This document shows positions 20,827 to 51,701 of a stretch of 64,000 bases of DNA, piece by piece. How positions within the stretch are numbered: position 1 is the stretch's first letter; each line of letters starts with the position of its first letter. Below the pieces are notes generated by a model. The model was not told where the DNA came from and made no database searches. It was given only the letters and a program-made list of their open reading frames with translations. The translations under genes and the position numbers were made by a program. Origin of the DNA: Rhododendron vialii (taxonomy: Eukaryota; Streptophyta; Magnoliopsida; Ericales; Ericaceae); the NCBI RefSeq assembly GCF_030253575.1, contig NC_080563.1, positions 34,395,001 through 34,459,000 of the forward strand. Reading direction: 5' to 3'.

Positions 20827-22809
20827 TGTGGGCACGCGCCCCCGGAAATTCCTTTTGTGGAATCGGGCGCAGCCCCCTTTGTGTTTGGAAGAGCGCGGCG
20901 AAACGCCTCAATTAGGAGTCGCCACTCGGGTTTTAGCGGTGAGAGCACCCAAGGAACCGAACTCGAAAACGTTTGCCACGTTTGTTTGATTTTGAAAAGG
21001 CATAGACCGGTCCGTCGTCACCTTCGATATCTGAGGTTCGGGAGCCAGGTTACTGGAGGGGAAGGGTTTTATGGCACCCCTCTCGCCCAATCCGGAGATC
21101 GGTCTCTACTCGGGCATTTTGTAAAAGCGCTTGCATTTCTCTCTCATTTGATCATTTTTTAGCCAGTTAGGGCGGGGGAACAGATAATGGGGATTAAAGC
21201 ATTATAACAAGTTGTGATTTATGTGGCAAAATGTTTATGAATGGCTTGATTGCAATGCTAAATATAGATTGAGAACAAGCACTGAGCAAACTGGACAAAT
21301 TGCAATACGCTGCCCCGCAGGGGTGTGAGCAAGTTCTACCAGCATGCACTGGCCGAGCCACTGCATGTTGATTTGACTTGCGCACGCCATAGCGAGACTG
21401 GCGTACTCCACTCATCTAGTTTCACAGTCCTTGTTTGCAACCCTCTGGGCTCTGCAAAAGGACCAGCGCACACCCAGGACAAACCATGCAGTTAAATAAA
21501 CAGGATATATATATTTACAGACAGATGAGATGGCTTGAAGCCATGAAAGTAGACAAGAAACCCCCTAAACAGAGTGGGGACAATAAGGAGGCCAAGACTA
21601 AACTGAGATGCAAGGGCCAGCCACTGGATCCTAGCTTTAACTGCCGTACGCCAGTCATGGACTGTCGTACGCACGTTTGGCCATAATCCAGTGCTTGGCT
21701 TTTGCATCATCTGGGCTCTGGAACATGACCAGAAGGATCCCAGAGGCCTTTTGAATGGACAAAGAGTAAGCAATAACCTTTATCTAAACAATAACAAACA
21801 CACAGAAAATAGTAAACTGGTTATTTAGCATGCAAGGGTGATTGACAGAAAGAGAAAACAAAAGGAATGACGATCCATGATCCCCACGCCAGTAGTGCTC
21901 GTTCTACCACGACTGGCGTACGGCATACGGTTACTGGCGTGCGCCATGTATCACCCCATACGTTCGTCATATTTTACCAGTTTGAGGCCAAGACTAGCAT
22001 TACTTACTAGCTTGGGCCTCACTGGCTCCCCTCAGGGGCCAAAAACAGAAAGGGACACAAAGGTGGTATACCTTTTTGTTTGAGGATTGAAGGTGGTGTT
22101 GAACTTTAAAGCTTGGAGATGGAAGCTTAGAGAGTGACTGGATGTCAGCAGGGTGTGTGGAAGTGGACTGTTTTCTTTTCTCTTTCAATGGAAGAAAAAG
22201 AGATAGAGAGCAAGAAAAGGAGGAAGGAGAAAGCTTCTACTTCTTAATGAGGCCAACCCCTTGCAAATGAATGCAAGGGGGGTATTTATAGAGGGGGAGT
22301 GACTGAGATCAGTTTGATCTAGGGCCTTGTTTGGCTGGTCAAAGCAAGGTTGGAGCCTCCCATGCATTAAATGCATGGGACTTGCCTTGATGGGGGGTGT
22401 AGGAGAGAGAGGGAACGTCTCTGCCGAAAGTAATCATCAAGGACGCTGTAGCCGACGTCAGGGTGGCACAAAAGTCCCGCCCAAGTGGCTGAATAAAGTT
22501 GATTTGATTGGATTTTACTGGCGTGCGCCACCATTAACTGGCGTGCGCCAGTAAAAGATGGGCCACTGGTCGATGACTGACACGTGGCAGATGACTGGCG
22601 TACGCCTTCAGGACACTGGCGTATGCCAATTGGGTTTTGCTGGGGCTGGTTGGCTCTGATTTGAAGGGTTCGAAAGGGGTTTGAGAGAGGTTAGGGATGC
22701 TCAAAGCTCAACCACACCTTTGTCCTTAAACTGTTTTCGACCTAAATCATCATTGGGGAAATAAAAGATCGACAAATAACGTTATCTGGACAGTCCAGAA
22801 TGGGGTGTC

Positions 22810-22813
<4 letters not shown>
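20827..22813 (-). mobile_element. solo LTR 1, ~2.0 kb, gypsy-type
   Basis: Starts TGTGGGCACG and ends GGGGTGTCTACA. It is flanked by the 5-bp duplication TATAT (20822-20826 and 22814-22818). The duplication, together with the absence of a second copy or internal domain, makes this a solo LTR. On the minus strand it begins TGTAGACACCCC and has a TATA box TATAAATA at 22290-22283, so transcription runs leftward. A diverged relative lies at 49743-51701. Five pairs of TGGCGTACGCCA-like palindromes are spread along it (about 21383/21397, 21650/21667, 21909/21935, 22517/22536, 22597/22615). Confidence 0.9.

Positions 22814-22818
<5 letters not shown>

Positions 22819-22875
<57 letters not shown>
22819..22875. 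repeat. (TA)n microsatellite
   Basis: Long TA run continuing from the right target duplication of solo LTR 1 to the family-B MITE on its right. Confidence 0.9.
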
Positions 22876-22880
<5 letters not shown>

Positions 22881-22909
22881 CATAAAAAAAATACATAAAA
22901 AAACACCCA

Positions 22910-23235
22910 AAATCTCAATCTCTTAGTTCCAAATCAATTTTTTATGATCCGAACCGTTCAATGTGTACAGAATGTGATTTTAAGGGTGCTCGCAATAAAT
23001 TAGCAAAAAAAATGATCGATAAAGGCTTGATTTGAGCAGTTTTTATTTAAACCGTTCAATAAAAAAGTGTTCAAAACTGTTCGGATCAAGCCCTTCCGGT
23101 CATTTTTTTTGCTAATTTCTCATGGGTACCCTTAAAATCACGTTCTAATCACATTGAGCGGCTCGGATCATCAAAATTTGATCGGAAAACTATGGGGTGT
23201 TTTTTTGGGCGTCCCCGGAACCGCCCCATTTATGT
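22910..23235. mobile_element. foldback MITE, family B copy 2
   Basis: Core arms ATGATCCGAACCGTTCAATG / CATTGAGCGGCTCGGATCAT, GTGATTTTAAGGGTGC / GGTACCCTTAAAATCAC and AGCAAAAAAAATGATC / GGTCATTTTTTTTGCT. It is flanked by (TA)n on both sides (22819-22875 and about 23236-23260). Outer ends are diverged. Confidence 0.8.
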
Positions 23236-23238
23236 ATG

Positions 23239-23267
<29 letters not shown>

Positions 23268-23270
<3 letters not shown>

Positions 23271-23632
23271 GTCCAGATCTCCTAAGGGATCCCGCACGGT
23301 CTTACCGTGCGGGACTCTCCTTTTCCAATCGAATTGCAACGATCCGAGCCGCTCAAAGTGATCAGAACGTGATTTTAAGAGTACCCTCACGAAATCAGCA
23401 AAAAAAATGATTGGAAAGGGCTTAATCCGAACAGTTTTTTATTGAACGGTTCAGTAAAAAACTGCTCGGATCAAGCCATTTCCGATCATTTTTTTTGCTG
23501 ATTTCTCGCGGGTACCCTTAAAATCACGTTCTGCACACTTTGAGCGGCTCGGATCGTCGCAATTTTATCGGGAAAAGGGAGTTCCGCACGGTAAGACCGT
23601 GCGGGATCCCTCATTGGATCCTAAGTGTATGT
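23268..23632. mobile_element. foldback MITE, family B copy 3, with nested terminal hairpins
   Basis: Same core as copies 1-2. Each end also contains its own small palindrome: CCCGCACGGTCTTACCGTGC near 23291 and CCGCACGGTAAGACCGTGCG near 23584. The outer ends are GGATCTCCTAAGGGATC-like. Flanked by TATATATACACACA and GTATATATATATAC. Confidence 0.85.
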
Positions 23633-24012
23633 GTATATATATATACACACACACTTCACTAGTTGGACCTAAAAATATAGTTTGGGCTTGACCTTTTTTT
23701 TGGTAAACAGTTTGGGCTTAACCACTTATTTTAGGTCTATTGGTTCTTGAGCATGGGCTCTTATTTTTTCTTGTAGCCCACTTGTATGTTCAGTTGGAGC
23801 TTGGGCTCTTTAATTTGCAATTTTGCCCAATATTTGCACCGGGTTGCTAGCTCTTGCAGCAAGCTTTTGTTAACAGGGGACTACCATAATCGATGTCAAC
23901 ATTCAGAGATCTCTAATGCAAAAAAGAGGAGAAATAGATGAAAAAAATGTGTAAGTACGTGTAGTCGTGTACGTTTCTCCTTTAGGCGTAAACGAGGACT
24001 TTTGTGCATGAT
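23633..24012. other. intergenic between two MITEs
   Basis: No gene or repeat structure recognised; T-rich with repeated 'TTGGGCTT' words. Confidence 0.35.
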
Positions 24013-24040
24013 GTTATATATATATATATATATATATATA

Positions 24041-24470
24041 GAGTCCGGATCTTCTAAGGGATCCCGCACGGTCTTACCGTGCGGGACTCCCCTTTCCCGA
24101 TCGAATTGCGACGATCCAAGCCGTTTAAAGTGATCAAAACGTGATTTTAAGGGTACTCGCGAGAAATCAACAAAAAAAATGATCGGGAAGGGCTTGATCC
24201 GAACAGTTTTTTATTGAATGGTTCAGTAAAAAACTGCTCGGATCAAGCCCTTCCTGATCATTTTTTTATCTGATTTCTTGCAAGTACTCTTAAAATCATG
24301 TTCTACACAATTTGAGCGGTTCGGATCATCATAATTCGATCAAGAAAGAAGAGTCTCGCACGGTAGCGTGCGGAATCCCTCAATTTGAGCGGTTCGGATC
24401 ATCGTAATTCGATCAAGAAAGGGGAGTCTCGCACGGTACCGTGCGGAATCCCTCATTGGATCCGAGTGTG
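24041..24470. mobile_element. foldback MITE, family B copy 4, duplicated right end
   Basis: Same core and terminal palindromes as copy 3, preceded by (TA)n at 24013-24040. The right terminal segment (TTTGAGCGGTTCGGATCATC .. CGCACGGTA.CGTGCGGAATCC) is present twice, at about 24309-24380 and 24382-24455, so the right end has a tandem duplication of about 73 bp. Confidence 0.85.
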
Positions 24471-24714
24471 TGTGTCTATATATATATGTATAAAGAGATG
24501 TCTCTGAGTAGAAGACAAGCTCCTCGGGCTAATTTCTTGTTGTTTTGAAAAAGGCAAGGTGTTTGGATAATGTTTGACTTCTTTTGGCATTTGGTAAATG
24601 CCTTAAGGCTGGGTTCCAGAACTCAAATAAGTTTTTATTTTTTGTTCAATAACAAGGGTTGTTCCACAAAAATGAAAAGAAGGTACTACCCTTTTCAGAA
24701 TTTATATAGGTACC

Positions 24715-25025
24715 AATGGGCACCGGAGAGGGAAATTGTACCGAAGGCCACGCCGGGCCATCTCCGACCACCGGAAGGCCGATTTGAGCCGTCCAAAAAT
24801 TCTAAAAAAAAAAATTGAGGGGGCATAAGTGAGAATCAACGGCATCCGAGGTGTGTAAGGTGCTTGATCCGAGCACCCCTTTTTCGTATAGCCGTTGATT
24901 CTCGCGTAGGCTCCCTCGATTTTTTTTTTTTTTTATAGAATTTTTGGACAGCTCGGATCGGCCTTCCGATGGTCGGAGACGGCCTAGCGCGGCCGTAGGT
25001 ACGATTTCCCTCTCCGGCGCCCATT
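24715..25025. mobile_element. foldback MITE, ~130-bp arms
   Basis: Ends AATGGGCACCGGAGAGGGAA and, inverted, TTCCCTCTCCGGCGCCCATT. Arms continue with CGGAAGGCCGAT, CCAAAAATTCTA, a poly-A/poly-T stretch and TGAGAATCAACGGC / GCCGTTGATTCTC. The loop is near 24870. Confidence 0.9.
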
Positions 25026-25029
25026 ACTC

Positions 25030-26318: not shown

Positions 26319-26529
26319 TTCCTTCTATTCATTTAGGTATCATAATTCCTTCTATTGATTCCTTTTACCATTCATCTTCTTAACTCTCTACCTCTCCCAC
26401 CACAACACCGAAATCACCAATAACTGCTTTGGAACTACGTCAAATTGAGGTGAGTTTGTTTTTCCTATGTACGTACAAGCTTTGGTTTGAAGTGCAGTGT
26501 TGACTGTTTTTCCTGTATACAAACTTTAT

Positions 26530-27325: not shown

Positions 27326-28008
27326 TGTAGCAGGCCGAGCAAAATGGCGCATGCCATTTCTGAACGTGATCCGGTATCCCGATCAACTCTGAGTCATTTT
27401 ACCCTCGACGATCAGAACGCCGAAGGCGTCCAGAGCCGAGGGTCCTGATTAATTATGACTCGCTTAATCGCCTCGGCCTCCAGCACCCACGCAAGTGGGA
27501 AACGCCTTCAGTTGGACATCCTCCGATGGTAGCACAACACGCTCGGTGCCGAACGAGCGTAGCCATCATTCCAGCTCACCTGCGTGGGAACAGCAACCAT
27601 GGCAATGATGATGGTTGTGACGTCATCCAAACGGTTATAAGGATAACGATGGGGGCACGTGAAGATGTCAGCTCATCCTATAAACGATTACAAAACCCTA
27701 AACGTGACGTAAGAGTGACGTCAGCCGACGCGTGTCGAGCGTTGGTGCAATCTTGGAGATCAAGCTAAGAGGTTCCCTATAAATATCTCATTATGCCTTC
27801 TTGGAAGAGGTACGCACAGAAAAAACCCTAGCTCCTAATTCCCAATTTCTCTCTGCAAATGAACTGACTCTTGCACCGGAGGGCCATCTTGGAGAACCTC
27901 CGGTGTGGTCTTTAGTCGTGCTTCATTTTGCAGGGTGAAGAAAGAGACTAGGAGCGGATCTCAAACCCATAGTCAGAAAGTGTGAACCATTCGGAATGAA
28001 ACGCCACA
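27326..28008 (+). repeat. 5' LTR of the old Tat element (683 bp)
   Basis: Begins TGTAGCAGGCCGAGC and ends CGCCACA, followed by a primer binding site. A TATA box TATAAATAT is at 27778-27786. Upstream, TGACGTAAGAGTGACGTCA at 27705-27723 is an as-1/ocs-like double TGACG site. Matches the 3' LTR at 49016-49688 with scattered substitutions and small length differences. Confidence 0.95.
27705..27723 (+). promoter_or_regulatory. as-1/ocs-like double TGACG element in the old Tat LTR
   Basis: TGACGTAAGAGTGACGTCA has two TGACG half-sites spaced as in the as-1 element bound by plant TGA bZIP factors. It lies about 55 bp upstream of the TATA box. The same 19 bases recur in the 3' LTR at 49385-49403. A response to salicylate or stress is inferred. 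Confidence 0.65.
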
Positions 28009-28011
28009 ATT

Positions 28012-29752: not shown

Positions 29753-30620
29753 TGTAGGGAGGTATTCCCGAACAGGTGCAAAATGAGCCCGAGCACGGTC
29801 AACAAAGGGTCAACGCATTGTGGACCACTGATATGAGAAGTCAATGGTCCAGAGAGGTTGTACGATTCTCGGTACAATAACATGAGACGTTATTGGACCA
29901 GATACAAGGAAAGTGACATGTGATGCCACTGTTCAGATACATTGTTCGGCAAGAGAAAAGCCGAACAGAAGGAGAGCTCCTTAGAAAGGATATGGTCCAA
30001 ATTGTTTCCTTAGGACCAGTTACATGTGAAGTAACTGGTCCAGACCATTTGTTCGGCTATGAGACGGCCGAACAAGGAAAGAGGTCCTGTCAGATAATGA
30101 AATAGAGGGAACATTCCGGAAGAGTCCAGAAACAGTGGTATTCCGTTAAGGAATAAGATCCCGAGAATATAGGGTCTGAGAAAGATACCCAATGAGAATG
30201 GGATGTTCGGTCAGTAATGGAAAAGAATCCTGAAAGGACTCTTTTCCATAAATTGATAAAGGAAACGAGAATCCTTGATATCCTGGGTTTCCTATACGAG
30301 TTGGGAATCCTATGGCAATAGGGATGCTTGGGCACCAAGCATCCGAATGTCTATATAAACAGAGCAAGCCTAGAGGTAAAAGGTACGCAATACACTGCAA
30401 TCTTATTGCTTTCCTACTGATAATTAGGGTTTGATCATTAGTACGAAATACTAACAAAGGCATCGGAGGGCCTTTGCCACGAGAGGCAAAGGTGCGCTCA
30501 CTCCTTGTCTGTTTTGCAGGATAAGGGTTTCTCTGACGAATTAGGGTTACGTTCAAGAGGCACGTGGAGCCGCTGCATTCCAGTGCTGTTCAAAGCACTA
30601 CTTGAATTTATCCACCTACA
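29753..30620 (+). repeat. 5' LTR of the young Tat element (868 bp)
   Basis: Begins TGTAGGGAGG and ends CACCTACA. TATA box TATATAAA at 30352-30359. The 3' LTR at 39742-40609 has exactly the same length. I noticed only two substitutions: near 29818 (ATTG versus ACTG) and near 30597 (ACTA versus ATTA). Confidence 0.97.
30352..30359 (+). promoter_or_regulatory. TATA box of the young Tat 5' LTR
   Basis: TATATAAA preceded by C and followed by CAGAGC. The identical box in the 3' LTR is at 40341-40348. Confidence 0.75.
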
Positions 30621-30622
30621 AT

Positions 30623-30640: not shown

Positions 30641-30668
30641 ACGAAAGAGTTCCCTTTGAAATACGACC

Positions 30669-33600
30669 ATGGTGGAAGTAGAGCCAGTAACGCCACACGA
30701 CCCGAAGGATGTGCTAATTGGAGGAGGGGATAAGTCTCCACCCGGGGCTCCGAGAAAGCCCGAAGGAGGACACAGAAGGACCACGAGTAAGGGCCACCCC
30801 CTTACTATCCATGGCAACTCCAGAAATAGAGATGGAGAGACGGCATCGAAGTCCACGAGAAGGACTAAATCCCATCGAGGGGATGAATCGATTGCACACT
30901 CCAGGAGTATATGCCGTAGCGAAGACGTTCTTGATAAGAAGAGACAAGAAATCGAGGAGTATGCTCGTTTGATCAAAAAACGAGAACATGAGATCAGAGA
31001 ATTAGAGAAAATCAGAGAACATCCGGAGGACTCTGGACTATCTCGAAGAAATTCTAGAGGTAGTGAATATGCTCTGGTGCAGTATCAAAAGGCTCCTTCG
31101 CGAGGAAGGAGGAGCAGAAGCAGAAGTCTGACCCCGAGGCGACGTAAAACTTCTCCACGAAAAGGGAGGAGCAGGATCCGAACACCCGAGCGAAGGAGGG
31201 TATCTCCAAGAAAGAGGAGAAGCAGAGGTCGGAGTTCTACCCCCGAAGAAGAAGGGAGTAGAAAACATCATAGGGACAGGTACGAGAGGCCTGATTCCGA
31301 TTGGGAACGAACTAGATCCAAGAAAGGACCAGAGGATGAAGCCATGACTGCACGGGAAGCAGCACGGAAAGCACTGCAGAATATAGCATCTTCCCCTTTT
31401 GCAAGAAAGTTACAGGAGGCTAGATTGCCGACCAGGGTAAAGCACGGGACATTCATCCTCTACGAGACAGATGCTGATCCCGTGGCCCATATACAGCATT
31501 ACCAGCAAGCGATGTTTATGCATGAAGGGGATGATGCAATCATGTGCAAGATGTTCCCGTCGAGTTTGGGGAAGGTTGCTCTGTCCTGGTTCCACAAACT
31601 GGGCTCGCGCTCCATCCGAACATGGGTGCAATTGGCCGAGGAATTCACTGCATGGTTCTTGACGAGCAGGAAAGCTCCCAAAACCTTTGAGAGTCTTTCT
31701 TTTATGAAACAAGGAGAGGACGAGCCGATCAGGACTTATGCAAAGAAGTACTGGGAAACCTTCAACGAAATTGAAGGATGTAGTGAAGAGTACGCAATAG
31801 CCACGTTCAAAACGGGTTTACCTGTTCGGGGGGAACTGCGTAAGTCTCTAAACATGAGTCCCGTGCAGACATTGGCAAAATTAATGGAGAGGATTGAGCA
31901 GCACGCCAGGAACGAGGATGACATCCTACGAGAGGATGGAAAGTTGGCCGCCGAGCAAGTAAAGGGGCCTATAAAGAAAGTTGACAAGCCAGAGCCCAAA
32001 ACTTATCGTGAAAGGAAAGATTATGGGCAGGCGAAGAAAGAGCAATACAAGGATAAACAAGCCCCGGATCCCAAGTCATTCTTTTCAATAAACACGGTTT
32101 GGAAAGAGCCCATTTACAGGATTCTTTATCGAATAAAGAATCAACCATACTTCAAATGGACCCCAACTCTTGGTGGGAATAAAGATGCAAAACGTGCTAC
32201 GAATCAGCACTGCAGTTACCATAAGGATTGGGGTCACATGACAGAGGACTGTGAGATGTTTAAACGACATCTTGATGATTTGGTCTCACGAGGTTACCTT
32301 AAAGAATTTATCCAAGAAGATTCCAAGGATAAAGACAAGGCAATGGAATTGGATTACGAACAGATTCCAAAAGGGGTAATCCATATGATACATGAATTAG
32401 CCGAACCTTATACGAGAAATGAGGTGAGATTGCTTCAGAGGCAAGTAAAACATGACCAACATGTAATGCAGTTGGGGAAGAAAAGAGGGCGCGACGAAAG
32501 GGCAAGTAACGAGGGCATAGTTTTTACAGATAAAGATCTGGGAGGAGTCCAGGTACCTCACAATGATGCTTTGGTCATAACCCTACGAGTTGGGGAATAT
32601 GATATGGAAAGAATCCTGGTGGATTCAGGAAGTTGCACCGAAGTGCTGTACTATGATGCATTTAAGAAACTGGGGCTCACACAAGAAGATTTGGTACAAT
32701 CAGTAACTCCATTGGTCGGATTTGGAGCAGGAGCAGTTTGGCCGTTAGGCAAGGTAACTCTGCCTGTTCGGGCTGGGACAGTGGTGCTACGAACCGACTT
32801 CTTAGTGGTGGATGTACCGTCTTCCTATAACGTGATTATAGGAAGGACATGGTGGCACAAGATGAGGGCGGTCTCTTCAACTTTTCATCAGATGGTAAAG
32901 TTCCCAGGGTCTAATGGGATTGAGCACATCAAAGGTAACCAAAAGATAGCTCAACAATGTTTGGTATCCATCATTAAAAGAGTCCATAATGCCCACCATA
33001 TTAATACTGTGGAAACTCCGGATCTGCCGACCATTGAGGATATCGGAAAAGACCCAACCGAGAGGGTGGTTGAGGATTTGAAGAAAACACAGATCAATGA
33101 GACTGATCCAAATAGGTATTTTCTAATTGGGGAATCACTGCCAGAAGAGGAAGAGAATGAACTGATTAGTTTTTTGAAAACTTATGTCGATGTATTTGCT
33201 TGGACACCAGAGGAGATGCCTGGGGTGAATGCAGATGTTATCTGCCATCATTTGAATATAGATCCACAGCATAAACCGGTCATTCAAAAGAAACGAAGGG
33301 CAGCCGTACAGCACGTTGACGCTGTAATTGAAGAAGTGGATCACTTGTTAGAAGCCAAGGCAATAAGGGAAGTTTATTATCCAGAGTGGCTATCAAATAC
33401 TGTTGTCGTCAAGAAAAAGAACGAAAAATGGCGTGTATGTGTTGACTTCACAGATTTAAACAAGGCGTGTCCTAAAGACAGTTTTCCTCTTCCAAGGATT
33501 GACCAGTTGGTTGATGCAACAGCAGGATATGGACGGATGAGTTTTCTCGATGCATATCGAGGATACCATCAAATTGCAATGTTTGGGCCAGATCAGGAGA

Positions 33601-36341
33601 AGACATCTTTTATTACACCACGAGGGTTGTACTGTTATAACGTCATGCCTTTTGGGTTGAAGAATGCAGGGGCAACGTTTCAGAGACTGGCAACCATTAT
33701 GTTCAGAAAATTGCTCGGCAAAACTATGGAGGTTTACATAGATGACATGGTGGTAAAGAGTAAATCTGGGCAAGGCCATATTGCAGATTTGAGAGAAGCT
33801 TTCGATATTTTGAGGAAATACAAGTTGAAACTCAACGCCTCGAAGTGTGCGTTTGGAGTCGGCTCTGGAAAGTTTTTGGGCCATCTTGTAACTCTAAGGG
33901 GAATAGAGGCAAATCCCGACCAGATAAAAGCCTTACAGAATCTGGAAAGTCCTCGGACAACGAAAGAAGTCCAACGATTAACTGGGATGGCAGCAGCTCT
34001 TAATCGATTTATTAGCCGATCAAGTGACAAGTGCAGACCTTTCTTTCAGCTATTGAAGAAAAGGGAAGGGTTCGAATGGGGAGCAGAATGTGAACAAGCC
34101 TTTCAGAATCTAAAGGGATATCTGGCCTCTCCTCCCCTACTCTCGACTCCAGAAACAGGTGAGTCTCTGATTTTATACTTAGCTGTTTCTAAGCATGCTG
34201 TAAGTGCAGTACTTTTAAGAGATAAGGGATCCGAGCAAATCCCAGTCTATTATGTGAGCAAAACTTTGTTAGATGCCGAAACAAGGTATTTGCCCCTCGA
34301 GAAATTGGTCCTAGCACTAAGGACAGCAACTAGAAAATTGCCACATTATTTCCAGAGCCATAAAGTTGTGGTCTACACCGAGTTCCCATTAAAATCACTG
34401 CTCCGAAAGGCAAATTTCTCGGGAAGGATCTCAACTTGGTCCGTTGAGTTGAGCCAATATGAAATCGACTATCAGCCGCGCACAGCAATCAAAGGCCAGG
34501 TGTTGGCAGATTTTGTGGCAGAGTTCTCACCTACGGTTGCACCTCTGCCTCCTACGAGAAAGGAGTGTGAAGCAAAGTCTCCTGTAACGAAGAAACAGGC
34601 GTTAGCCGAACAAGATCCCCTGGAATGGAAGCTGTTTGTTGATGGGTCAGCTTGCAACACCGGTTCAGGTATTGGAGTTGTGCTTTTACCCCCTGAAGGG
34701 TCAATGTTAGAATTATCTGTTCGGCTAGGGTTCAATGCATCAAATAATGTGGCAGAGTATGAGGCACTCTTAGCTGGTTTGAGAAGTGCAAAAATCCTAA
34801 AAGCTGAACGAGTTAGGGTGTATTCTGATTCACAGCTCGTGGTCCATCAACTGTCCGGGCAATATGAAACCCGGAGCAAGAAGATGGCGGCATATGTACA
34901 GGTGACCAGAGATCTACTTGATACCTTCGAAAGGGTGTATATTGAACAGATAAGTTCTAGGAAGAATGCTCATGCAGATTCATTGGCATGGTTAGCCGCA
35001 GCTGTGCCATCTGAGTTTAAAAGAAAAATAGCCGTAGAGTATTTGGCTGAGCCGAGCATTGGCAGAAGTGTAGAGATGGTCTTGGACGTGAACCAAGGAC
35101 CAAGTTGGATGGACCCAATAGTGGAGTTTTTACGAGATGAAGTACTCCCTTTGGACAAAAAGGAGGCACATAAAATCAGGACCAAATCTGCTCGGTTCTG
35201 GTTATCCCCAGAGGGAAAACTATATAGGAAGTCTTTTACAGGACCCTACTTGCTTTGTGTGCATCCTGAGATGGTGCAAAAGTTCCTCCACGAAATTCAC
35301 GAGGGGACTTGTGGAAGCCATGCTGGTGGTCGGTCCATAGCCCACCGAGCAATCACCCAAGGGTATTGGTGGCCGTACATGCAAGAAGATGCTAAGGTGT
35401 ACGTAAAAATTTGTGAGAAGTGTCAGAAATTTTCACCAATGATTCGAACACCAGCCGAGGACCTGGTGCCGCTGACAAGTCCCTGGCCGTTTGCTCAATG
35501 GGGAATGGACATAGTGGGTCCACTACACAAAGCAACTGGGAATCGAAAATTCCTATTAGTTGCAACAGATTACTTCACTAAATGGATTGAGGCTGAGCCG
35601 TTGGCCAAGATTACTGAACCTATGATAGAAAGGTTTGTGTGGAAAAGCATCATAACTCGCTTTGGGGTACCCTATTCGTTGATTACAGACAATGGGTCGC
35701 AATTTCAGAAGAAATTCAAAACTTTCTGTGCCCAGTATGGGATAAGAAATTATTATTCAACTCCAGCTTACCCTCAAAGTAACGGACAAGCAGAGGCTTC
35801 AAACAAAACAATCCTTGATGGGATTAAGAAACGTTTGGATAAGGCAAAGGGGAAATGGCCCGATGAATTGCCATTGGTCCTATGGGCATACCGAACAACG
35901 CCTAGGAGGTTTACGGGAGAGACCCCCTATTCATTAGCATATGGAACAGAGGCTGTTATTCCATTAGAAATAGGTCTGCCGACCAACAGGACCACTTTGG
36001 TTGAAAGTGGAGGAAATGACAGAGCCTTGGAGATTGAGTTAGACTTTGCCGAGGAACGACGAGAACGGGCCTTGGTGCACTTGGCCTCATACCAAGAGCA
36101 GCTCATCAAAAGTTATAACAAGAATGTACACCCACGAGAGTTTGGTGTTGGAGACCTTGTGCTACGAAAAGTGCTCGGCAATACTAAAGTGGCTAATGAG
36201 GGAAAGCTAGGGGCAAATTGGGAAGGCCCATATCGAGTTACAGAAATCGCGGGCATTGGGGCTTATCGATTGGCGGACTTGGACGGGAACCCAGTGCCAA
36301 GACCTTGGAATGTCCATAATCTGAGAACGTTTTTTATATGA
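30669..36341 (+). CDS. Gag-Pol polyprotein of the young Tat element (1890 aa)
   Basis: The start ATG is in a strong context (ACCATGG), about 48 nt after the LTR. Domains in order: basic/Ser-Arg-rich region (about 145-200), gag core (about 257-400), a C/H knuckle-like motif (CSYHKDWGHMTEDC, about 514), aspartic protease (ILVDSGS, about 650), reverse transcriptase (about 890-1090; YIDDMVVKS), a first RNase H (about 1140-1290), a second, archaeal-like RNase H (LFVDGSACNTGSG, about 1320-1450), integrase zinc motif H-H-C-C (about 1553-1586) and DDE core (GMDIVGP, ITDNGSQF, NGQAEASNK; about 1600-1725). Gag and Pol share one frame without a stop. The protein copies the element's RNA and integrates the cDNA. 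All main catalytic motifs look intact. Confidence 0.97.
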   Translation: MVEVEPVTPHDPKDVLIGGGDKSPPGAPRKPEGGHRRTTSKGHPLTIHGNSRNRDGETASKSTRRTKSHRGDESIAHSRSICRSEDVLDKKRQEIEEYARLIKKREHEIRELEKIREHPEDSGLSRRNSRGSEYALVQYQKAPSRGRRSRSRSLTPRRRKTSPRKGRSRIRTPERRRVSPRKRRSRGRSSTPEEEGSRKHHRDRYERPDSDWERTRSKKGPEDEAMTAREAARKALQNIASSPFARKLQEARLPTRVKHGTFILYETDADPVAHIQHYQQAMFMHEGDDAIMCKMFPSSLGKVALSWFHKLGSRSIRTWVQLAEEFTAWFLTSRKAPKTFESLSFMKQGEDEPIRTYAKKYWETFNEIEGCSEEYAIATFKTGLPVRGELRKSLNMSPVQTLAKLMERIEQHARNEDDILREDGKLAAEQVKGPIKKVDKPEPKTYRERKDYGQAKKEQYKDKQAPDPKSFFSINTVWKEPIYRILYRIKNQPYFKWTPTLGGNKDAKRATNQHCSYHKDWGHMTEDCEMFKRHLDDLVSRGYLKEFIQEDSKDKDKAMELDYEQIPKGVIHMIHELAEPYTRNEVRLLQRQVKHDQHVMQLGKKRGRDERASNEGIVFTDKDLGGVQVPHNDALVITLRVGEYDMERILVDSGSCTEVLYYDAFKKLGLTQEDLVQSVTPLVGFGAGAVWPLGKVTLPVRAGTVVLRTDFLVVDVPSSYNVIIGRTWWHKMRAVSSTFHQMVKFPGSNGIEHIKGNQKIAQQCLVSIIKRVHNAHHINTVETPDLPTIEDIGKDPTERVVEDLKKTQINETDPNRYFLIGESLPEEEENELISFLKTYVDVFAWTPEEMPGVNADVICHHLNIDPQHKPVIQKKRRAAVQHVDAVIEEVDHLLEAKAIREVYYPEWLSNTVVVKKKNEKWRVCVDFTDLNKACPKDSFPLPRIDQLVDATAGYGRMSFLDAYRGYHQIAMFGPDQEKTSFITPRGLYCYNVMPFGLKNAGATFQRLATIMFRKLLGKTMEVYIDDMVVKSKSGQGHIADLREAFDILRKYKLKLNASKCAFGVGSGKFLGHLVTLRGIEANPDQIKALQNLESPRTTKEVQRLTGMAAALNRFISRSSDKCRPFFQLLKKREGFEWGAECEQAFQNLKGYLASPPLLSTPETGESLILYLAVSKHAVSAVLLRDKGSEQIPVYYVSKTLLDAETRYLPLEKLVLALRTATRKLPHYFQSHKVVVYTEFPLKSLLRKANFSGRISTWSVELSQYEIDYQPRTAIKGQVLADFVAEFSPTVAPLPPTRKECEAKSPVTKKQALAEQDPLEWKLFVDGSACNTGSGIGVVLLPPEGSMLELSVRLGFNASNNVAEYEALLAGLRSAKILKAERVRVYSDSQLVVHQLSGQYETRSKKMAAYVQVTRDLLDTFERVYIEQISSRKNAHADSLAWLAAAVPSEFKRKIAVEYLAEPSIGRSVEMVLDVNQGPSWMDPIVEFLRDEVLPLDKKEAHKIRTKSARFWLSPEGKLYRKSFTGPYLLCVHPEMVQKFLHEIHEGTCGSHAGGRSIAHRAITQGYWWPYMQEDAKVYVKICEKCQKFSPMIRTPAEDLVPLTSPWPFAQWGMDIVGPLHKATGNRKFLLVATDYFTKWIEAEPLAKITEPMIERFVWKSIITRFGVPYSLITDNGSQFQKKFKTFCAQYGIRNYYSTPAYPQSNGQAEASNKTILDGIKKRLDKAKGKWPDELPLVLWAYRTTPRRFTGETPYSLAYGTEAVIPLEIGLPTNRTTLVESGGNDRALEIELDFAEERRERALVHLASYQEQLIKSYNKNVHPREFGVGDLVLRKVLGNTKVANEGKLGANWEGPYRVTEIAGIGAYRLADLDGNPVPRPWNVHNLRTFFI

Positions 36342-39741: not shown

Positions 39742-40609
39742 TGTAGGGAGGTATTCCCGAACAGGTGCAAAATGAGCCCGAGCACGGTCAACAAAGGGTC
39801 AACGCACTGTGGACCACTGATATGAGAAGTCAATGGTCCAGAGAGGTTGTACGATTCTCGGTACAATAACATGAGACGTTATTGGACCAGATACAAGGAA
39901 AGTGACATGTGATGCCACTGTTCAGATACATTGTTCGGCAAGAGAAAAGCCGAACAGAAGGAGAGCTCCTTAGAAAGGATATGGTCCAAATTGTTTCCTT
40001 AGGACCAGTTACATGTGAAGTAACTGGTCCAGACCATTTGTTCGGCTATGAGACGGCCGAACAAGGAAAGAGGTCCTGTCAGATAATGAAATAGAGGGAA
40101 CATTCCGGAAGAGTCCAGAAACAGTGGTATTCCGTTAAGGAATAAGATCCCGAGAATATAGGGTCTGAGAAAGATACCCAATGAGAATGGGATGTTCGGT
40201 CAGTAATGGAAAAGAATCCTGAAAGGACTCTTTTCCATAAATTGATAAAGGAAACGAGAATCCTTGATATCCTGGGTTTCCTATACGAGTTGGGAATCCT
40301 ATGGCAATAGGGATGCTTGGGCACCAAGCATCCGAATGTCTATATAAACAGAGCAAGCCTAGAGGTAAAAGGTACGCAATACACTGCAATCTTATTGCTT
40401 TCCTACTGATAATTAGGGTTTGATCATTAGTACGAAATACTAACAAAGGCATCGGAGGGCCTTTGCCACGAGAGGCAAAGGTGCGCTCACTCCTTGTCTG
40501 TTTTGCAGGATAAGGGTTTCTCTGACGAATTAGGGTTACGTTCAAGAGGCACGTGGAGCCGCTGCATTCCAGTGCTGTTCAAAGCATTACTTGAATTTAT
40601 CCACCTACA
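39742..40609 (+). repeat. 3' LTR of the young Tat element
   Basis: Matches the 5' LTR position for position (offset 9989) without indels, preceded by the polypurine tract at about 39727-39740 and followed by the target duplication CCACG. Confidence 0.97.
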
Positions 40610-45790: not shown

Positions 45791-45792
45791 TC

Positions 45793-48258
45793 CTACTGCT
45801 CGACAGGTGCATCAACCATTTCCTCGTCATCATCCTCGGGTGGCAAAGGTTGGCATTCCTCTTCGGTATATGGAAGGTCAAGATCTGGCACAACCGGCTG
45901 AGGAAGCTGTTTAAGGAACTCAAATTCTGGTTGGATAGCCATCACCCCAGCCATCGCGTCGGCACCGGCAGTGTACCCCAGTCTGAAAAAATTAGTTAGC
46001 CGAGCCTCCAGCTCATCGTTCATCATTTTGCGAGCAATTTGGGTGTACTCGAGGGCAGCTCGATTGATCTTGGCTTCATACCCCTTTGCGTCGGCCTTCC
46101 TAAGTTTTTCCTTTTCTTCCTCCTTCATTTTTTTCATCTCAGCCTCGGAAGTCGAGGTAGAGGCTTTAGCTTTAGCAAGCTCTTTCTGAAGCTTCTCTAC
46201 CTCAACTTCGGCATCTTTAACCTGTTGATCAGAGATCCTCCATTTGGTGCGGTTGGAGTCTCGGTCTGACTTATACCTCTCTCGCTCGGCACTTACCTTA
46301 GTGGCCTTATCATAAGCTTTCAAAGCAGCTTGCCCGGCTTGACATAACAACGAAGTCAGAATCAGAAGCGAAATGAAAATTTTTGAGGAAAAACTATAAC
46401 AAATAAGCTAAATACAAGGAATACATGCACTAAATGAGAACACATCTCCCCGAGCCCAGGGAGGAGATCAGTTGGCCCTTGGTCGTAATCTCTCGGAAGA
46501 GCTAGCCCCCTTAAAAGAGTCACGACAAGGTTCGGTTTTTCTTTCACCGAGTCACTCATTTGTAAAATCCTGCCGTCCGACATCGTGTACGAAGGACTGA
46601 ATTGACGTCAAACGGCGGCCTCGGTTGCAGGGTCGGTAAGATCGATGTGTGGGTCGGTGAGATTTCTTTGCTCTTTAGGCGGTGAGGCATGAGCAACATC
46701 AGAAGGAGCCGATTGAAGGATGTTCGGTTGTGGGACATCCTTAGATACCTTTTGCCTCTTCTCTTTTTGCTGCTTCTGCTGGTCTGTAGAGCCTCGACTT
46801 CGGCTAGGGTTAGCCGTCTTCATTGGGATCACCGGCCTGGGAATGTTCCTCCTTGACATATCCTCAGTAGAAGTTTCGACCAACTCGTCAGATCCGAACG
46901 GCGTAAGCCACTCCTCAGCCGTAAACCCGATCCTCGGCAACCTTACCCCCCCTATTGCCTCTTCTTTCGGATGCCTTCAGCGTTTGAGGTTACCTTCTTC
47001 TTCCGAGCAGCCTTGGTGGTCGGAACGCCTGTTGTCTTTTTCTTGCTCGGCTTGGCCTCTTTACAATTTTCCTTCCTCCTTAGCACACCCTTGTACGAAG
47101 GTCGGTAATCAAGTAGGGTTGGAGCGTGTCGACAAGCTTGGGCGAGAAGTGTGTCGCAGGCCTTCTCTCGGGAATTGGTGTTGAGTCCTTTCGATATTGG
47201 ACCAAGCTCTACAAGCGGAAGATAGCAAGAATAAACGCATTAGCAACAAAAGAAAAGTCAGACGAACATTTCTGGAAAATAAAAAATAATGGTTCGGTAG
47301 TACCTCTCGTGTCCCTAACTTTCGGAATTGTATACCGATGCAGACCATCCCAAACTCATAGTTCCCATGAACTTCAAGGTAGAAATCGGCCCATTTATCC
47401 GTGTCGGATAAGCCTTCTATCAAAGGACTCTTTTTGGGACGAGTCGTAAGATACCGACGACCAGACTTACCTTGTCGAGACATGGTGTATGTGAAGAAGA
47501 GGTCCGTCGGCCTAAAGTCAAGATCTTGGCTCTCAATCAAGGCGATTACCGACATGATTATTCGGTAACTGTTGATCGCGGCTAATGGGGAGCCAGACTA
47601 AATCTCCAGAGTATTTCCCTAAGGAAAGGGTGAAAGGGGAACCGAAGCCCAGCCTCACAAATGGCCATGAAGGGTATGGTTATATGCTCGGGATGATGCT
47701 CCCTCTGGTCTTTAATTTCAGTGCTCCTAACTCGATGAATCAGCACGTCGTCAGGGATGTTGTACTTTACGCGGAATGCTTCGTACTTCCCGGGATCACA
47801 CTAAAGTAATGAGTGTAGGGGCATAGCAGACCTTTGTCAAATAGATCGACGTCGCTCGGAGCCGACGTCGAAGCCTCGGTACTAGACAAAAACCTCGACT
47901 TGGCCTCACGACCCATTTGAGGATCGACTTCAGATTGCGTCTCTACGGTGAAGCTGATCTCGGGGTCGGTCAAAAAGTCATCTGCGGCGTACTCATGAAC
48001 ATGCTCGGCATTCGAGTCATTGGATGCGGGAGAATTTGCCGACATCCTGGTAGAGATAAATTCGATCGGGCGGCCGCTCCTCATTCTACGTTGCTCAAGA
48101 AATTCACTAATGAATTGACGATCGAATTTTGTTTCCGAGCAATCCGAGTCTGTAGACACGTCGATGACCTCGTGAGCCAGACCTAGGAGAAGAACAAAGG
48201 GGTAATAAGTAGTTGAAATCTGCGTCGGTAAAGAAAATAATCTGAAAGTTCGGCTCAT
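45793..48258 (-). pseudogene. antisense gene of the old Tat element, decayed
   Basis: Minus strand. 48258-47590 holds acidic N-terminal sequence and then, after a frame change near 47790, KYEAFRVKYNIPDDV and AICEAGLRFPFHPFLREIL, clearly related to the first domain of the young antisense gene. It continues at 47555-47330 (GLSDTDKWADFYLEV). 46940-46608 is a Ser/Lys-rich linker, and 46350-45793 a long coiled coil (AEVEVEKLQKELAKAKAST) with an acidic tail (PEDDDEEMVDAPVEQ). Domain order equals that of the young element. Stops and frame changes make it non-functional as read; exact exon edges were not fixed. Confidence 0.72.
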
Positions 48259-48705
48259 CTTATCGGCTCACGAGTCATAGCTATCCTAGAATGGGCTCGG
48301 TACTCCTGAAACGTCTCTCTACGCTCGGCCTAACAATCAAAGGGTGATCCCGTTCGGTTACTTACCCCCATCGGGAGAAGTCGTTCGGAGAGCCCCGAAC
48401 ATCCTATTGGGGCTCGGACGAACAGATTGAATTTAGGGATGAACATCATTGTTCACCCAGATTTCTGCTATTGACTCAGAGCAGGAAAACGCCCAAAATC
48501 ACCCCAAAAACCCAGAAAGGGTGCATGAAAAGCAAAGTAAAAAGAAAAGCGATAAAAATCGATGACATACCTGAAGATTTCTGTTGAAATAAGGCTTAAA
48601 GGTGAAGATCTGGATCTGAATCGAGCTCTGGAATGGAGTTGTAGAGAGAAAAGCTCCAAATGCTAAAGAGAGAAAGTGCAGAAGACCCTTCTCTCTCCTC
48701 CTTTG

Positions 48706-48720
48706 TCGTTATTTATAGAT
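48706..48720 (-). promoter_or_regulatory. TATA box for the old Tat antisense gene
   Basis: Read on the minus strand the sequence is ATCTATAAATAACG, a canonical plant TATA box, followed by a CT/GA-rich leader toward the antisense gene that starts near 48258. Confidence 0.6.
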
Positions 48721-49015
48721 GGAGCGGGCGTTTCGAATTTCCCGCCCATCATTTCACCGCCGAACCCCACGCCAACCACCATGAGACACGTGGCGACTGA
48801 TAGCCTTTCCTACGCCAGCCGTTTCTTCATCTGCCAAGGCGTCCTTTCGATCGACACACCTATTCAAATGCTCGACAACTGTCACCCTATGTGGGGCTCG
48901 GATAAATCCGTAGCAATTCCGAAAGAAGATCCTCGGTTAAAGCTCGGCCTAATCCGAAATCAACCCATACCAAGCAGGAAGCCTCGGCATGGGTTGAGGG
49001 GCTATTGTAGCAGGC

Positions 49016-49688
49016 CGAGCAAAATGGCTATTGCCATTTTTGAACGTGATCCGGTATCCCGATCAACTCCGAGTCATTTTACCCTCGACGTTCAAAACGC
49101 CGAAGGCGTCCAGAGCCGAGGGTCCTGATTAATTATGACTCGCTTAATCGCCTCGGCCTCCAGCACCCATGTGAGTGGGAAACGCGTTCGGTTGGACATC
49201 CTCCGATGGTCGCATAACACGCTCGGTGCCGAACGAGCGTAGCCATCATTCCAGCTCACCTGCGTGCGAACATCAACCGTGGCAATGATGATGGTTGTGA
49301 CGTCATCCAAACGGTTATAAGGATAACGATGGGGGCACGTGAAGATGCCAGCTCATCCTATAAACGGATACAAAACCCTAAACGTGACGTAAGAGTGACG
49401 TCAGCCGACGCGTGTCGAGCGTTGATGCAATCTTGGAGATCAAGCTAAGAGGTTCCCTATAAATATCCCATTATGCCTTCTTGGAAGAGGTACGCATAGA
49501 AAAAACCCTAGCTCCTAATTCCCAATTTCTCTCTGCAAGTGAACTAACTCTTGCACCGGAGGGCCATCCCGGAGAACCTCCGATGTGGTCTTTAGTCTTG
49601 TTTCATTTTGCAGGGTGAAGAAAGAGACTAGGAGTGGATCTCGAACCCACAGTCAGAAAGTGTGAACCATTCGGAATGGAGCCCCATA
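49016..49688 (+). repeat. 3' LTR of the old Tat element (673 bp)
   Basis: Begins TGTAGCAGGCCGAGC after the purine-rich GGGTTGAGGGGCTAT and ends CCCCATA, where the 5' LTR has CGCCACA. Keeps the TGACG pair at 49385-49403 and the TATA box at 49458-49466. Followed by the target duplication GAATG at 49689-49693. Confidence 0.95.
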
Positions 49689-49693
49689 GAATG

Positions 49694-49742
49694 AAATAGC
49701 AAAAAGATAAGGGACGTGTATGCTTGATGATCTGCACAATAA
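49694..49742 (+). pseudogene. fragment of RPA1-like exon 3 between two insertions
   Basis: Only 49 bp of the RPA1-like exon survive between the old Tat element and solo LTR 2. Read in the frame of the upstream part it continues from LWN with EIAKR, then a stop TAA at 49708-49710, then GTCMLDDLHN. The stop is within the original exon and not caused by either insertion. Confidence 0.75.
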
Positions 49743-51701
49743 TGTGGGCAGCGTGCCCTTCGAAATTTCCGGATTCCGAGACGCAAGGGCCCAGATCGAG
49801 GGAGCGCAAGCAGGGAAGCAAGCGCTCGCAAAATACAGAGTCGCCACTCGGGTTTGAAGGTCCGACACCCAAGGAACCGTATTTCGAAGCACTTGCCGCG
49901 CTGTTTGATTTGAAAAAGTTAAGGAACCAGTCCGTCATAACCATATCTGGGTTTGGGAGCCATGTTACGAGAGGGGAAAGGTTTTATGGCACCCCTCTCG
50001 CCCATTCCGGAGATCGGTTTCTACTTAGGCATTTGCGAAAATGTTTGTTTGCGATTCTATTTTGATTGATCAATTTTTAGCCAATTAGGGCGGGGGAACA
50101 GTTAATCGGGGATTAATACTGTAACATGTTTACAGGATGTGATAGGATATGGCATGGATTAGTGAGATGACAAGTAATAAATGGAATGAAGTTCAAAACG
50201 TCGATCATACATCAAGACAGCGCTGTGTATGATTTTGGCACGAACAAACAGCCAGCTTGCATGCGTGAGTTCATCCGCATGCAAGCAAACCATCGCGCAA
50301 CACAACCATATACTCGCGCGAGTATTGACGCTTCACCAATGGTTTGAATTTCACCCCCTTCTGGGCTCTGGAAGGACCAGTGCTCACCCAGGTGCAAACC
50401 AAGCAGTTTATAGGTACTTGAAAGTAAACAATATTACAACAAATAGATGGAAATATTATAAAAACGCAACCCCTAAACAGTGGGGGTGTCTAAACAGAGG
50501 CCAAGGCCAAACTGCTCATGCAAGGGCAGTCCCTGGAAGACAGAGAACCATCGCACGACAGAGTGATACAGGCGCGCGATTGTTCAGACTGGACTTCCAG
50601 GAATTGCTTTGCATACTTAGGGCTCTGAGACATGTTCAGGAGCATCCCAAGAGCATTCCAAACCAAGAGGTGTTATAAACTAAGCTAAATAATGATTTTC
50701 AACATGCAAAACAGCAAAGCAGTGAGCTAAAGCTCCTTAAAAGACTTTAAAAAGACTACAAACACAATAATAAACTTAAAGACCAGGGTCCCTTCCCCAC
50801 GTGGTCCAATCTCACGCAGACAGAATTGTTGCGCGAGTATATGGGACCATCGTGCGAGGGTTTCCCAGGTAACAGCTCTTGAAACCCTGCTAGCTTTAGG
50901 GCCAGAACTGGTATCGATTACCAGCCTTGACCCTGCCAGCCCCCCTCAGGGGTTCGAACAGTGAGCAGAAAGATATTATACCTTTGCTTGAGTGTCTTGG
51001 AGATGGCTTGAATGATGAGATGGTGAGATTTGGAGGGTGATTATGTGGGAGTGAGTGGGGTGTGAGATGTTTGTGCTTGAGTTTGCCTTCTTCTTTCTTG
51101 GAGAGAGATTGGTAACCCCTTGCAAGGAAACATGGGGGGGGGGGGGGGGGGGGGGGTATTTATAGAAAAAGGGGTTAGTTGGTGGCTAGCCAAGGCCTTG
51201 TAACCAGCCAACAATGCTGGTTACAATTGCTTGGTGGAGGAGTGGGGTGGCAAAGGTGATGGGAGAATGGGGGGTGAGGTGGTGCAAGGGGAGCCCCCCC
51301 AGAACGCTGTTCAGCCGAGAAAAACGGGGTCACATAGGCCTGTAGCCCCCTGACCACCACGCAATCTGGGTGAAAATGACACGTGTTGACCATCGCGCGA
51401 CGAAGTGAGAGCATTGCGCGAGGGTCCAGCCAACCCCGCGAGGGTCAATGGTCAAAGCTTTGACTTTGATCACCACCTGGCAAATGGACCATCGCGCGAG
51501 GATCCCAGTATGTCGCGCGACATTCAAACCCGAGGTCCAGGTTCTGATTCAAGGGTTTAAGGGCTAAGAATGGGTTCCTCACATGCCAAACTCAAGCCAT
51601 TCCAAGTTCTCGAGACTGTTTTCGACCTGATTCATCATCGGGGAATCAAGAAACCGAAGAACAAAGTAAAACGATCGGGAAGTCAGATCGGGGTGTCTAC
51701 A
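49743..51701 (-). mobile_element. solo LTR 2, ~1.96 kb, related to solo LTR 1
   Basis: Starts TGTGGGCAGC and ends GGGGTGTCTACA. It is flanked by the 5-bp duplication AATAA (49738-49742 and 51702-51706). It aligns along its length with solo LTR 1 (GAGTCGCCACTCGGGTTT, TTTTATGGCACCCCTCTCGC, AGGGCGGGGGAACAG). The minus-strand TATA box TATAAATA lies at 51164-51157. At the five places where LTR 1 carries paired TGGCGTACGCCA-type palindromes, this copy carries CATCGCGCGA-type palindromes (about 50288/50312, 50551/50570, 50827/50848, 51393/51415 and 51493/51512). Confidence 0.92.
51134..51156. repeat. G23 homopolymer next to the solo LTR 2 TATA box
   Basis: 23 consecutive G on the plus strand, directly adjoining the TATTTATA at 51157-51164. 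On the transcribed (minus) strand it is a C run immediately downstream of the TATA box. LTR 1 has only six G at the matching place (22277-22282). Confidence 0.95.

What the first reader, a model, noticed from the sequence alone, without database searches (positions are those of the whole stretch)
20827..51701. Paired CpG-rich palindromes, swapped as a set between two LTRs of one family
The two solo LTRs (20827-22813 and 49743-51701) align along their length. Each holds five clusters of short palindromes, usually two per cluster, at matching offsets (roughly 0.55, 0.8, 1.08, 1.65-1.69 and 1.75-1.77 kb from the left end). In LTR 1 nearly all are variants of TGGCGTACGCCA; in LTR 2 they are variants of CATCGCGCGA. 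The flanking sequence is shared (for example CAAGGGC.AG.CC.TGGA before cluster 2 and CTGATT.GAAGGGTT after cluster 5), yet the motif differs throughout. That points to concerted replacement of an iterated binding site or of a motif that spreads within the LTR, not independent drift. Three clusters lie downstream and two upstream of the minus-strand TATA box.
Basis: seen in the sequence. Interest (0 to 1): 0.82.

Follow-up and report, generated by a model that had tools for sequence, protein, structure and literature searches.

The report
Paired palindromes wired through a retrotransposon
Two families of large plant jumping genes each carry their own version of a short mirror-image DNA site, nearly always in pairs about 21 letters apart, in the control regions of the element and near the two backward genes inside it, which suggests that the element makes a protein that recognises its own DNA.

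Summary
LTR 1 (20827-22813) and LTR 2 (49743-51701) each carry five pairs of 16-bp palindromes: M1, ACTGGCGTACGCCAGT, and M2, ACCATCGCGCGATGGT, which share 8 of 16 positions. Spacing is 21 bp (20 in one pair), two helical turns. In the host genome, 40 copies of family 1 and 28 of family 2 keep sites, type and spacing with few exceptions. The two are anciently diverged Ogre-like gypsy families, not one family. The full-length members read carry four more pairs of their own type: one upstream of an antisense Plant Mobile Domain (PMD) gene, one in its first exon, two upstream of a second antisense gene; the gag-pol pieces have no pair. Genome-wide, listed core pairs sit at 20-21 bp in 47 of 50 (M2), 83 of 84 (M1) and 45 of 50 (a third core, TCGTACGA) places; GGCGCGCC gives only 4 pairs, one at 20 bp. 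Two elements without the antisense genes keep nearly all LTR sites. Best explanation: cis sites for a trans-acting DNA-binding protein, probably the element's own PMD protein, that activates or shields its promoters. Binding, binder and effect are inferred.

The parts
20827..22813 (-). Solo LTR 1 (family 1, M1 motif); TSD TATAT on both sides
49743..51701 (-). Solo LTR 2 (family 2, M2 motif); TSD AATAA on both sides
21376..21412 (.). LTR 1 module 1: M1 sites at 21376 and 21397 (21 bp)
21640..21676 (.). LTR 1 module 2: M1 sites at 21640 and 21661 (21 bp)
21912..21948 (.). LTR 1 module 3: M1 sites at 21912 and 21933 (21 bp)
22517..22552 (.). LTR 1 module 4: M1 sites at 22517 and 22537 (20 bp), upstream of the TATA box
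22594..22630 (.). LTR 1 module 5: M1 sites at 22594 and 22615 (21 bp), upstream of the TATA box
50289..50325 (.). LTR 2 module 1: M2 sites at 50289 and 50310 (21 bp)
50547..50583 (.). LTR 2 module 2: M2 sites at 50547 and 50568 (21 bp)
50825..50861 (.). LTR 2 module 3: M2 sites at 50825 and 50846 (21 bp)
51389..51425 (.). LTR 2 module 4: M2 sites at 51389 and 51410 (21 bp), upstream of the TATA box; an extra single match at 51430-51445
51488..51524 (.). LTR 2 module 5: M2 sites at 51488 and 51509 (21 bp), upstream of the TATA box
22283..22290 (-). Probable TATA box (TATAAATA) of LTR 1
   Evidence: read directly
51157..51164 (-). Probable TATA box (TATAAATA) of LTR 2
   Evidence: read directly
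21607..21708 (.). Inverted arms 21607-21629/21686-21708 centred on module 2 of LTR 1
   Evidence: I3, 83% complementary
50526..50607 (.). Inverted arms 50526-50539/50594-50607 around module 2 of LTR 2
   Evidence: I8, 86% complementary

Best explanation
The paired palindromes are binding sites for a sequence-specific trans-acting DNA-binding protein, read as two dimers on the same face of the helix (16-bp dyads, 20-21 bp apart). They sit at the promoters of the element: the LTR, antisense gene A (PMD) and antisense gene B (DUF7745-like, weakly PMD-like). The most likely binder is one of the element's own antisense-encoded PMD-type proteins, which would activate its promoters or protect them from silencing. 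SHOWN: the sites, their spacing, their uniformity within the families, their repetition near the two antisense genes, the absence of pairs from the gag-pol pieces read, constraint on the antisense proteins within families, and retention of LTR sites in two elements that lack those genes. INFERRED: that a protein binds, that it is the PMD protein, that it binds as two dimers, that the antisense pieces are spliced genes with these promoters, that the outcome is activation or anti-silencing, and that each family recognises only its own sites.
For: Spacing: family 1 modules 1-3 are at 21 bp in 40 of 40 copies, module 5 in 39 of 40, module 4 at 20 (29) or 21 (8) in 37 of 40; the rest are shortened in the alignment. 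Family 2: all five at 21 bp in 28 of 28. Copies include LTR pairs of single elements, so they are not all independent. Genome-wide: M2 core 3415 pairs, reversed-letter control 1, 47 of the 50 distinct places listed, all on C1, at 21 bp. M1 core 318 forward and 347 reverse, control 0 and 1, 61 at 21 and 22 at 20 of 84 distinct listed. TCGTACGA core 70 pairs, control 8, 45 of 50 distinct listed at 21. Internal modules: M1 pairs and no M2 in family 1 pieces, M2 pairs and no M1 in family 2 pieces, at matching places. TATA-like boxes lie downstream of the gene B modules in L048 and L077 and of the gene A module in L048. Gene A exon 2 matches PMD, E 3.4e-28 (L050) and 3.6e-30 (L074). dN/dS of the PMD exon within families 0.07-0.34 in six pairs. 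The in-exon module reads GRTPAVVVRTPGV in L048 and DRRATQSDRRATV in L077 (letters), so the peptide differs with the site. L087 and L088 give no tblastn match to genes A or B, yet their LTRs keep 10 of 10 (L037, L038) or 9 of 10 sites (L018, L019), with LTR-pair divergence K2P 0.0035 and 0.0149.
Against: No binding, expression, methylation or small-RNA data. No solved structure related to PMD was found (best E 0.27), and the PMD is not established as a DNA-binding domain. Sites are hardly more conserved than their surroundings within a family (0.962 against 0.933 in family 1; 0.968 against 0.974 in family 2). L087 and L088 suggest a trans factor but not its source. Motif and protein divergence come from only two families, so co-divergence cannot be separated from age. 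No clear TATA was seen for gene A in L077. The 36-37-bp modules can also fold as RNA hairpins. The rare core GGCGCGCC, meant as a negative control, gave 4 pairs with spacings 29, 29, 29 and 20, too few to test the spacing rule.
Confidence: 0.55

Rival explanations
1. The sites bind a host transcription factor (stress or developmental) that the element exploits, and the antisense genes are merely co-regulated.
For: LTR repeats that bind host factors are known, and the Sirevirus authors mainly recovered stress-related factor sites for their palindromes (PMC2829016, passages). Some sites lie upstream of TATA-like boxes here.
Against: Family 1, family 2 and a third core use different sites with the same 21-bp geometry, which would need several host factors with one architecture. 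I did not test whether host promoters carry such pairs.
Confidence: 0.25
2. The pairs act as RNA hairpins (16-bp stem, 4-5-nt loop) in the element's transcript, for packaging, translation, or as a source or target of small RNAs.
For: The 18 modules examined fold at -7.5 to -25.6 kcal/mol, against mononucleotide-shuffle means of -4.1 to -11.8; 17 of 18 are below their own shuffle mean, one (module 1 of family 1, + strand) is not. Palindromes in Sirevirus LTRs have been linked to siRNAs (recalled; the paper was not held).
Against: Departures from consensus are rarely compensated in the hairpin partner (Watson-Crick only, G-U not counted): M1 0 of 47, M2 10 of 62; 20 of 62 M2 departures, but 0 of 47 M1 departures, are matched within their own palindrome. 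A stem needs neither self-symmetric arms nor placement upstream of promoters.
Confidence: 0.12
3. The uniform motif is a by-product of gene conversion or short-repeat spread within each element, with no function.
For: Motif sets are uniform within families, and sites are hardly more conserved than flanks within a family.
Against: The pairs keep 20-21-bp spacing and matching positions across families at saturated or nearly saturated synonymous divergence, one pair is kept inside a coding exon, and no pair was found in the gag-pol pieces searched.
Confidence: 0.05

Closest known systems
Sirevirus (Ty1/copia) palindromic repeated motifs, Bousios et al. 2010, PMC2829016
   Same: Element-specific palindromes, CpG-rich, repeated in the LTR near the TATA box and, in some elements, again upstream of an internal gene (ENV) (passages).
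   Different: Copia, not gypsy; nearly all have a CGG-CCG core and lie upstream of TATA; the passages I saw report no fixed two-turn pairing and no antisense PMD genes.
VANDAL/VANC anti-silencing of Arabidopsis, Hosaka et al. 2017, PMC5735166
   Same: Element-encoded protein with a DUF1985 domain, short iterated sites in non-coding regions, sites that change together between related families (passages).
   Different: DNA transposon; the VANC21 motif YAGTATTAY is arrayed in one orientation, often as tandem repeats; binding was shown there and not here.
Ogre (Tat) elements with a PMD extra ORF, Neumann et al. 2019, PMC6317226
   Same: Gypsy order RT, RH, second RNase H; PMD extra ORF, reported in 57% of Ogre elements (passages).
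   Different: The passages I saw describe no cognate DNA site and ask whether extra ORFs have any function.
Gypsy PMD-A clades and host MAIN/MAIL1, Ikeda et al. 2017 PMC5418596 and Nicolau et al. 2020 PMC7156037
   Same: PMD family; host members act in silencing, and a promoter motif ('DOWN') is enriched among genes downregulated in their mutants (passages).
   Different: [quoted passage not shown] the DOWN motif was not compared here.

Membership tests
Ogre lineage (Ty3/gypsy Tat) | gypsy gag plus RT-RH followed by a second RNase H (aRH) | tested here: met
   L051: Retrotrans_gag in 6145-7284; RVT_1, RT_RNaseH and RVT_3 in that order in 919-5634
Ogre lineage (Ty3/gypsy Tat) | integrase after the aRH | not tested
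   no rve match in the family 1 and 2 ORFs scanned; the stretch downstream was not scanned
Ogre lineage (Ty3/gypsy Tat) | PMD extra ORF (57% of Ogre elements) | tested here: met
   E 3.4e-28 (L050) and 3.6e-30 (L074); antisense, in the half next to the 3' LTR
Ogre lineage (Ty3/gypsy Tat) | placement in an RT tree; tRNA type of the PBS | not tested
   PBS letters seen, tRNA not identified; no tree built
Retand (Tat) | antisense ORF with the TRP28 domain PF04195 | tested here: not met
   no PF04195 match at E 0.05 in the antisense ORFs given to Pfam; the long pol-3'LTR region with antisense ORFs and tandem repeats does resemble Retand
Sirevirus | Ty1/copia polyprotein | tested here: not met
   Retrotrans_gag and RT, RNase H, second RNase H order
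Sirevirus | CGG-CCG palindrome core | tested here: not met
   M1 GGCGTACGCC and M2 TCGCGCGA
VANDAL/VANC | VANDAL DNA transposon with a DUF1985 protein | tested here: not met
   LTR retrotransposon; DUF1985 only E 0.0027 and 1.6e-4, below the curated cut-off
VANDAL/VANC | protein binds the iterated motif and removes methylation | not testable with these tools
   needs bench or methylome data

The most novel reading that the evidence does not exclude
A gypsy LTR retrotransposon carries its own sequence-specific trans-acting system: antisense-encoded PMD proteins that bind paired palindromes at all of its promoters, with protein and site diverging together between families, so that each family activates or de-silences only itself and its non-autonomous relatives.
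Probability: 0.4. Interest if true: 0.9.

Novelty: new variant of a known kind. Interest (0 to 1): 0.78.

Why it matters
Gypsy-encoded PMD proteins are widely distributed in flowering plants and host PMD proteins act in silencing, but the function of the domain is reported as undetermined (PMC5418596, passages). This finding gives the element versions concrete candidate target sites, with built-in specificity controls (M1, M2 and a third core) and a sharp spacing rule, so the question becomes testable with a simple binding experiment. If true, the VANC style of self-recognition is not confined to DNA transposons.

Tried and rejected
Perfect-palindrome counts alone and a strict pair-of-palindromes scan missed the modules, because single sites are imperfect; consensus matching was used instead. 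The hairpin reading was tested and disfavoured, not excluded. Exact LTR patterns gave no match in prokaryote or viral contigs. The other two LTR elements in the window show only isolated single matches to M1 or M2 and no pair in the strict scan, which also missed the true modules, so they were not pursued. Paper searches. In the listings (titles and starts of abstracts; one search listed 15 of 503) I saw no report of paired LTR palindromes with PMD genes; this covers only open-licence PMC text.

Sites dropped or odd: in family 1, module 4 is shortened in 3 of 40 copies and module 5 in 1. Of the 39 long non-window matches of family 2, 27 were fetched and 12 were not. In L050 one of eight internal sites fell below 11/16. 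Isolated single matches at 11/16 occur elsewhere in the pieces, gag-pol pieces included. Codons with stops were left out of dN/dS. The PMD protein search of the genome did not complete, so the number of PMD copies is not given.
Full report
WHAT IS THERE. The window holds two minus-strand solo LTRs, 20827-22813 and 49743-51701, each between 5-bp duplications. They align over their length at 1027 of 1808 aligned positions. LTR 1 has ten sites close to ACTGGCGTACGCCAGT (M1; 12-15 of 16 matches). LTR 2 has ten sites of the type ACCATCGCGCGATGGT (M2; 9-14 of 16 matches in the window copy). In each LTR the ten form five pairs. Start-to-start spacing is 21, 21, 21, 20, 21 bp in LTR 1 and 21 in the five pairs of LTR 2. 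Chance is excluded: 10 M1 sites at 12 or more of 16 against 0.035 expected in LTR 1; 8 M2 sites at 11 or more of 16 against 0.37 expected in LTR 2 (seven paired sites and one extra at 51430); none of the other type at 11 or more in either. The two consensuses agree at 8 of 16 positions (skeleton ACYRKCGYRCGMYRGT, my derivation), including one CpG in each half.

FAMILY-WIDE TEST. The window's assembly (532.6 Mb, 13 contigs; my guess, from size and contig number alone and recalled, is a Rhododendron) gave 40 long matches to LTR 1 (8 shorter pieces besides) and 40 to LTR 2 (4 shorter pieces besides), lower bounds by the tool's own note. I used all 40 of family 1 and 28 of family 2, the window copies included; some are the two LTRs of one element. 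The spacing of modules 1-3 is 21 bp in 40 of 40; module 4 is 20 bp in 29, 21 in 8, and shortened in 3; module 5 is 21 in 39 and shortened in 1. In family 2 all five are 21 bp in 28 of 28. Motif type is uniform: 396 of 400 and 254 of 280 sites match their own consensus better; 4 and 25 tie; 0 and 1 reverse. Sites are hardly more conserved than their flanks: mean majority frequency in family 1 is 0.962 inside and 0.933 outside, in family 2 0.968 inside and 0.974 outside. The case therefore rests on pairing, spacing, position and comparison between families, not on low substitution within a family.

THE REST OF THE ELEMENT. Both families have full-length members about 21 kb long (pairs of matches). 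I read separate pieces: both halves of three family 1 elements and of one family 2 element, the pol-3'LTR half of two further family 2 elements, and the gag-pol half of two others. The sense strand carries gag and RT, RNase H, second RNase H. In the half next to the 3' LTR lie antisense open pieces that I read as two genes; splicing is inferred. Gene A: a low-complexity N-terminal piece, a PMD piece (PF10536, E 3.4e-28 and 3.6e-30; weak DUF1985 below cut-off) and a third piece. Gene B resembles DUF7745 weakly (below cut-off), and its second piece in L074 resembles the C-terminal part of PMD weakly (E 0.0066). Amino-acid identity between L050 and three family 2 elements is 62-66% for the PMD piece and 37-62% for the other antisense pieces; between L051 and one family 2 element (L075) it is 76% for the main pol segment, 47% for the upstream segment and 58% for gag. 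Within families dN/dS is 0.07-0.34 for the PMD piece, 0.15-0.33 for the third piece, 0.19-0.36 and 0.12-0.29 for gene B, and 0.24-0.71 for the first piece. Between families synonymous distances are 1.2 to beyond estimation. Some copies carry stops.

THE MOTIF SET EXTENDS INWARD. Four further pairs lie in the pol-3'LTR half of each of the six full-length elements read: one upstream of gene A, one inside its first exon, and two upstream of gene B. They are of type M1 in family 1 (8 of 8 sites at 11 or more of 16 in L048 and L053, 7 of 8 in L050) and of type M2 in family 2 (8 of 8 in L074, L076 and L077). No match of the other type at 12 or more was found in these pieces. The six gag-pol pieces (L049, L051, L052, L075, L085, L086) have no pair; four of them have one or two isolated 11/16 matches. 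In L048 a TATA-like box lies about 60 bp beyond the gene A module, and CTATAAAG lies beyond the gene B modules in L048 and L077. I did not see a clear TATA for gene A in L077. The in-exon module encodes GRTPAVVVRTPGV in L048 and DRRATQSDRRATV in L077 (letters), so the peptide differs along with the DNA site.

GENOME-WIDE SPACING. Exact core pairs with any gap from 4 to 25 bp were counted. M2 core: 3415 pairs, reversed-letter control 1; of the 50 distinct places listed, all on C1, 47 are at 21 bp and 3 at 27, the latter between adjacent pairs. M1 core: 318 forward and 347 reverse, control 0 and 1; 61 at 21, 22 at 20, 1 at 31 of 84 distinct places listed. The mixed core TCGTACGA: 70 pairs, control 8; 45 of 50 distinct listed at 21, the others 26, 30, 30, 31, 31. 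The other mixed core GGCGCGCC: 4 pairs, control 2, with spacings 29, 29, 20 and 29, so it is rare, and too few to test the rule. Thus a third class follows the rule.

NON-AUTONOMOUS RELATIVES. Two shorter elements with family 1 LTRs (L087, L088) give no tblastn match to genes A or B and no internal pair. Their LTRs keep 10 of 10 (L037, L038) and 9 of 10 sites (L018, L019); LTR-pair divergence is 0.0035 and 0.0149, within the range 0.0035-0.0173 of the ten family 1 pairs measured. A third short element (L089) has both antisense genes and the four internal modules but no match to the gag-pol half. This division of labour is what a trans-acting factor with cis sites would allow.

MECHANISM. Twenty-one base pairs is two helical turns, so two dyads would face the same side and could hold two dimers. 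Departures in M1 sites are not compensated in a hairpin partner (0 of 47) nor within their own palindrome (0 of 47); in M2 10 of 62 are compensated in the partner, against 20 of 62 within the same palindrome (Watson-Crick only). This favours a double-stranded DNA site over an RNA stem, although stems are possible: 17 of 18 modules fold below their shuffle mean. The antisense PMD proteins are the natural candidates: they are element-encoded, under constraint, divergent between families, and pairs lie upstream of and within their genes. Nothing here shows binding. Search of solved structures found no relative (best E 0.27).

COMPARISON. Sireviruses have element-specific CpG palindromes near the TATA box and, in some, upstream of ENV (PMC2829016, passages). 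VANDAL elements have motifs that change together and VANC proteins with DUF1985 (PMC5735166, passages). [quoted passage not shown] The present case combines these: gypsy, PMD, paired palindromes with a fixed period, at the LTR and near two antisense genes, distinct by family. It works like VANC/VANDAL and looks like the Sirevirus motifs, but is a member of neither.

VERDICT. The concerted idea is partly right: the unit is the whole element, the change is old, and the motifs are variants of one palindrome.

Noticed in passing
27326-49686: Large LTR element (LTRs 27326-28006 and 49006-49686, 94.7% alike) with another nested inside (LTRs 29753-30620 and 39742-40609, 99.8% alike; one 1893-aa open frame 30660-36341 with gag, RT, RNase H and integrase).
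   Followed up: partly
13422-15368 (+): Pieces of a hAT transposase (hAT-like RNase-H and Dimer_Tnp_hAT).
   Followed up: no
51134-51156: Run of G next to the TATA box of LTR 2.
   Followed up: no
21607-21708 and 50526-50607: Module 2 of each LTR is flanked by inverted arms centred on it or nearly so, with arm sequences that differ between the LTRs yet stay complementary within each.
   Followed up: partly
L089: Element with family 1 LTRs and both antisense genes but no match to the gag-pol half: a possible carrier of the regulator alone.
   Followed up: partly
L048:252-889: Array of about 30-bp tandem repeats between the 3' LTR and antisense gene A; related stretches occur in L087 and L088.
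   Followed up: no
G000:C1:10545056-10545107: Three M1 cores in a row, each 21 bp apart.
   Followed up: no
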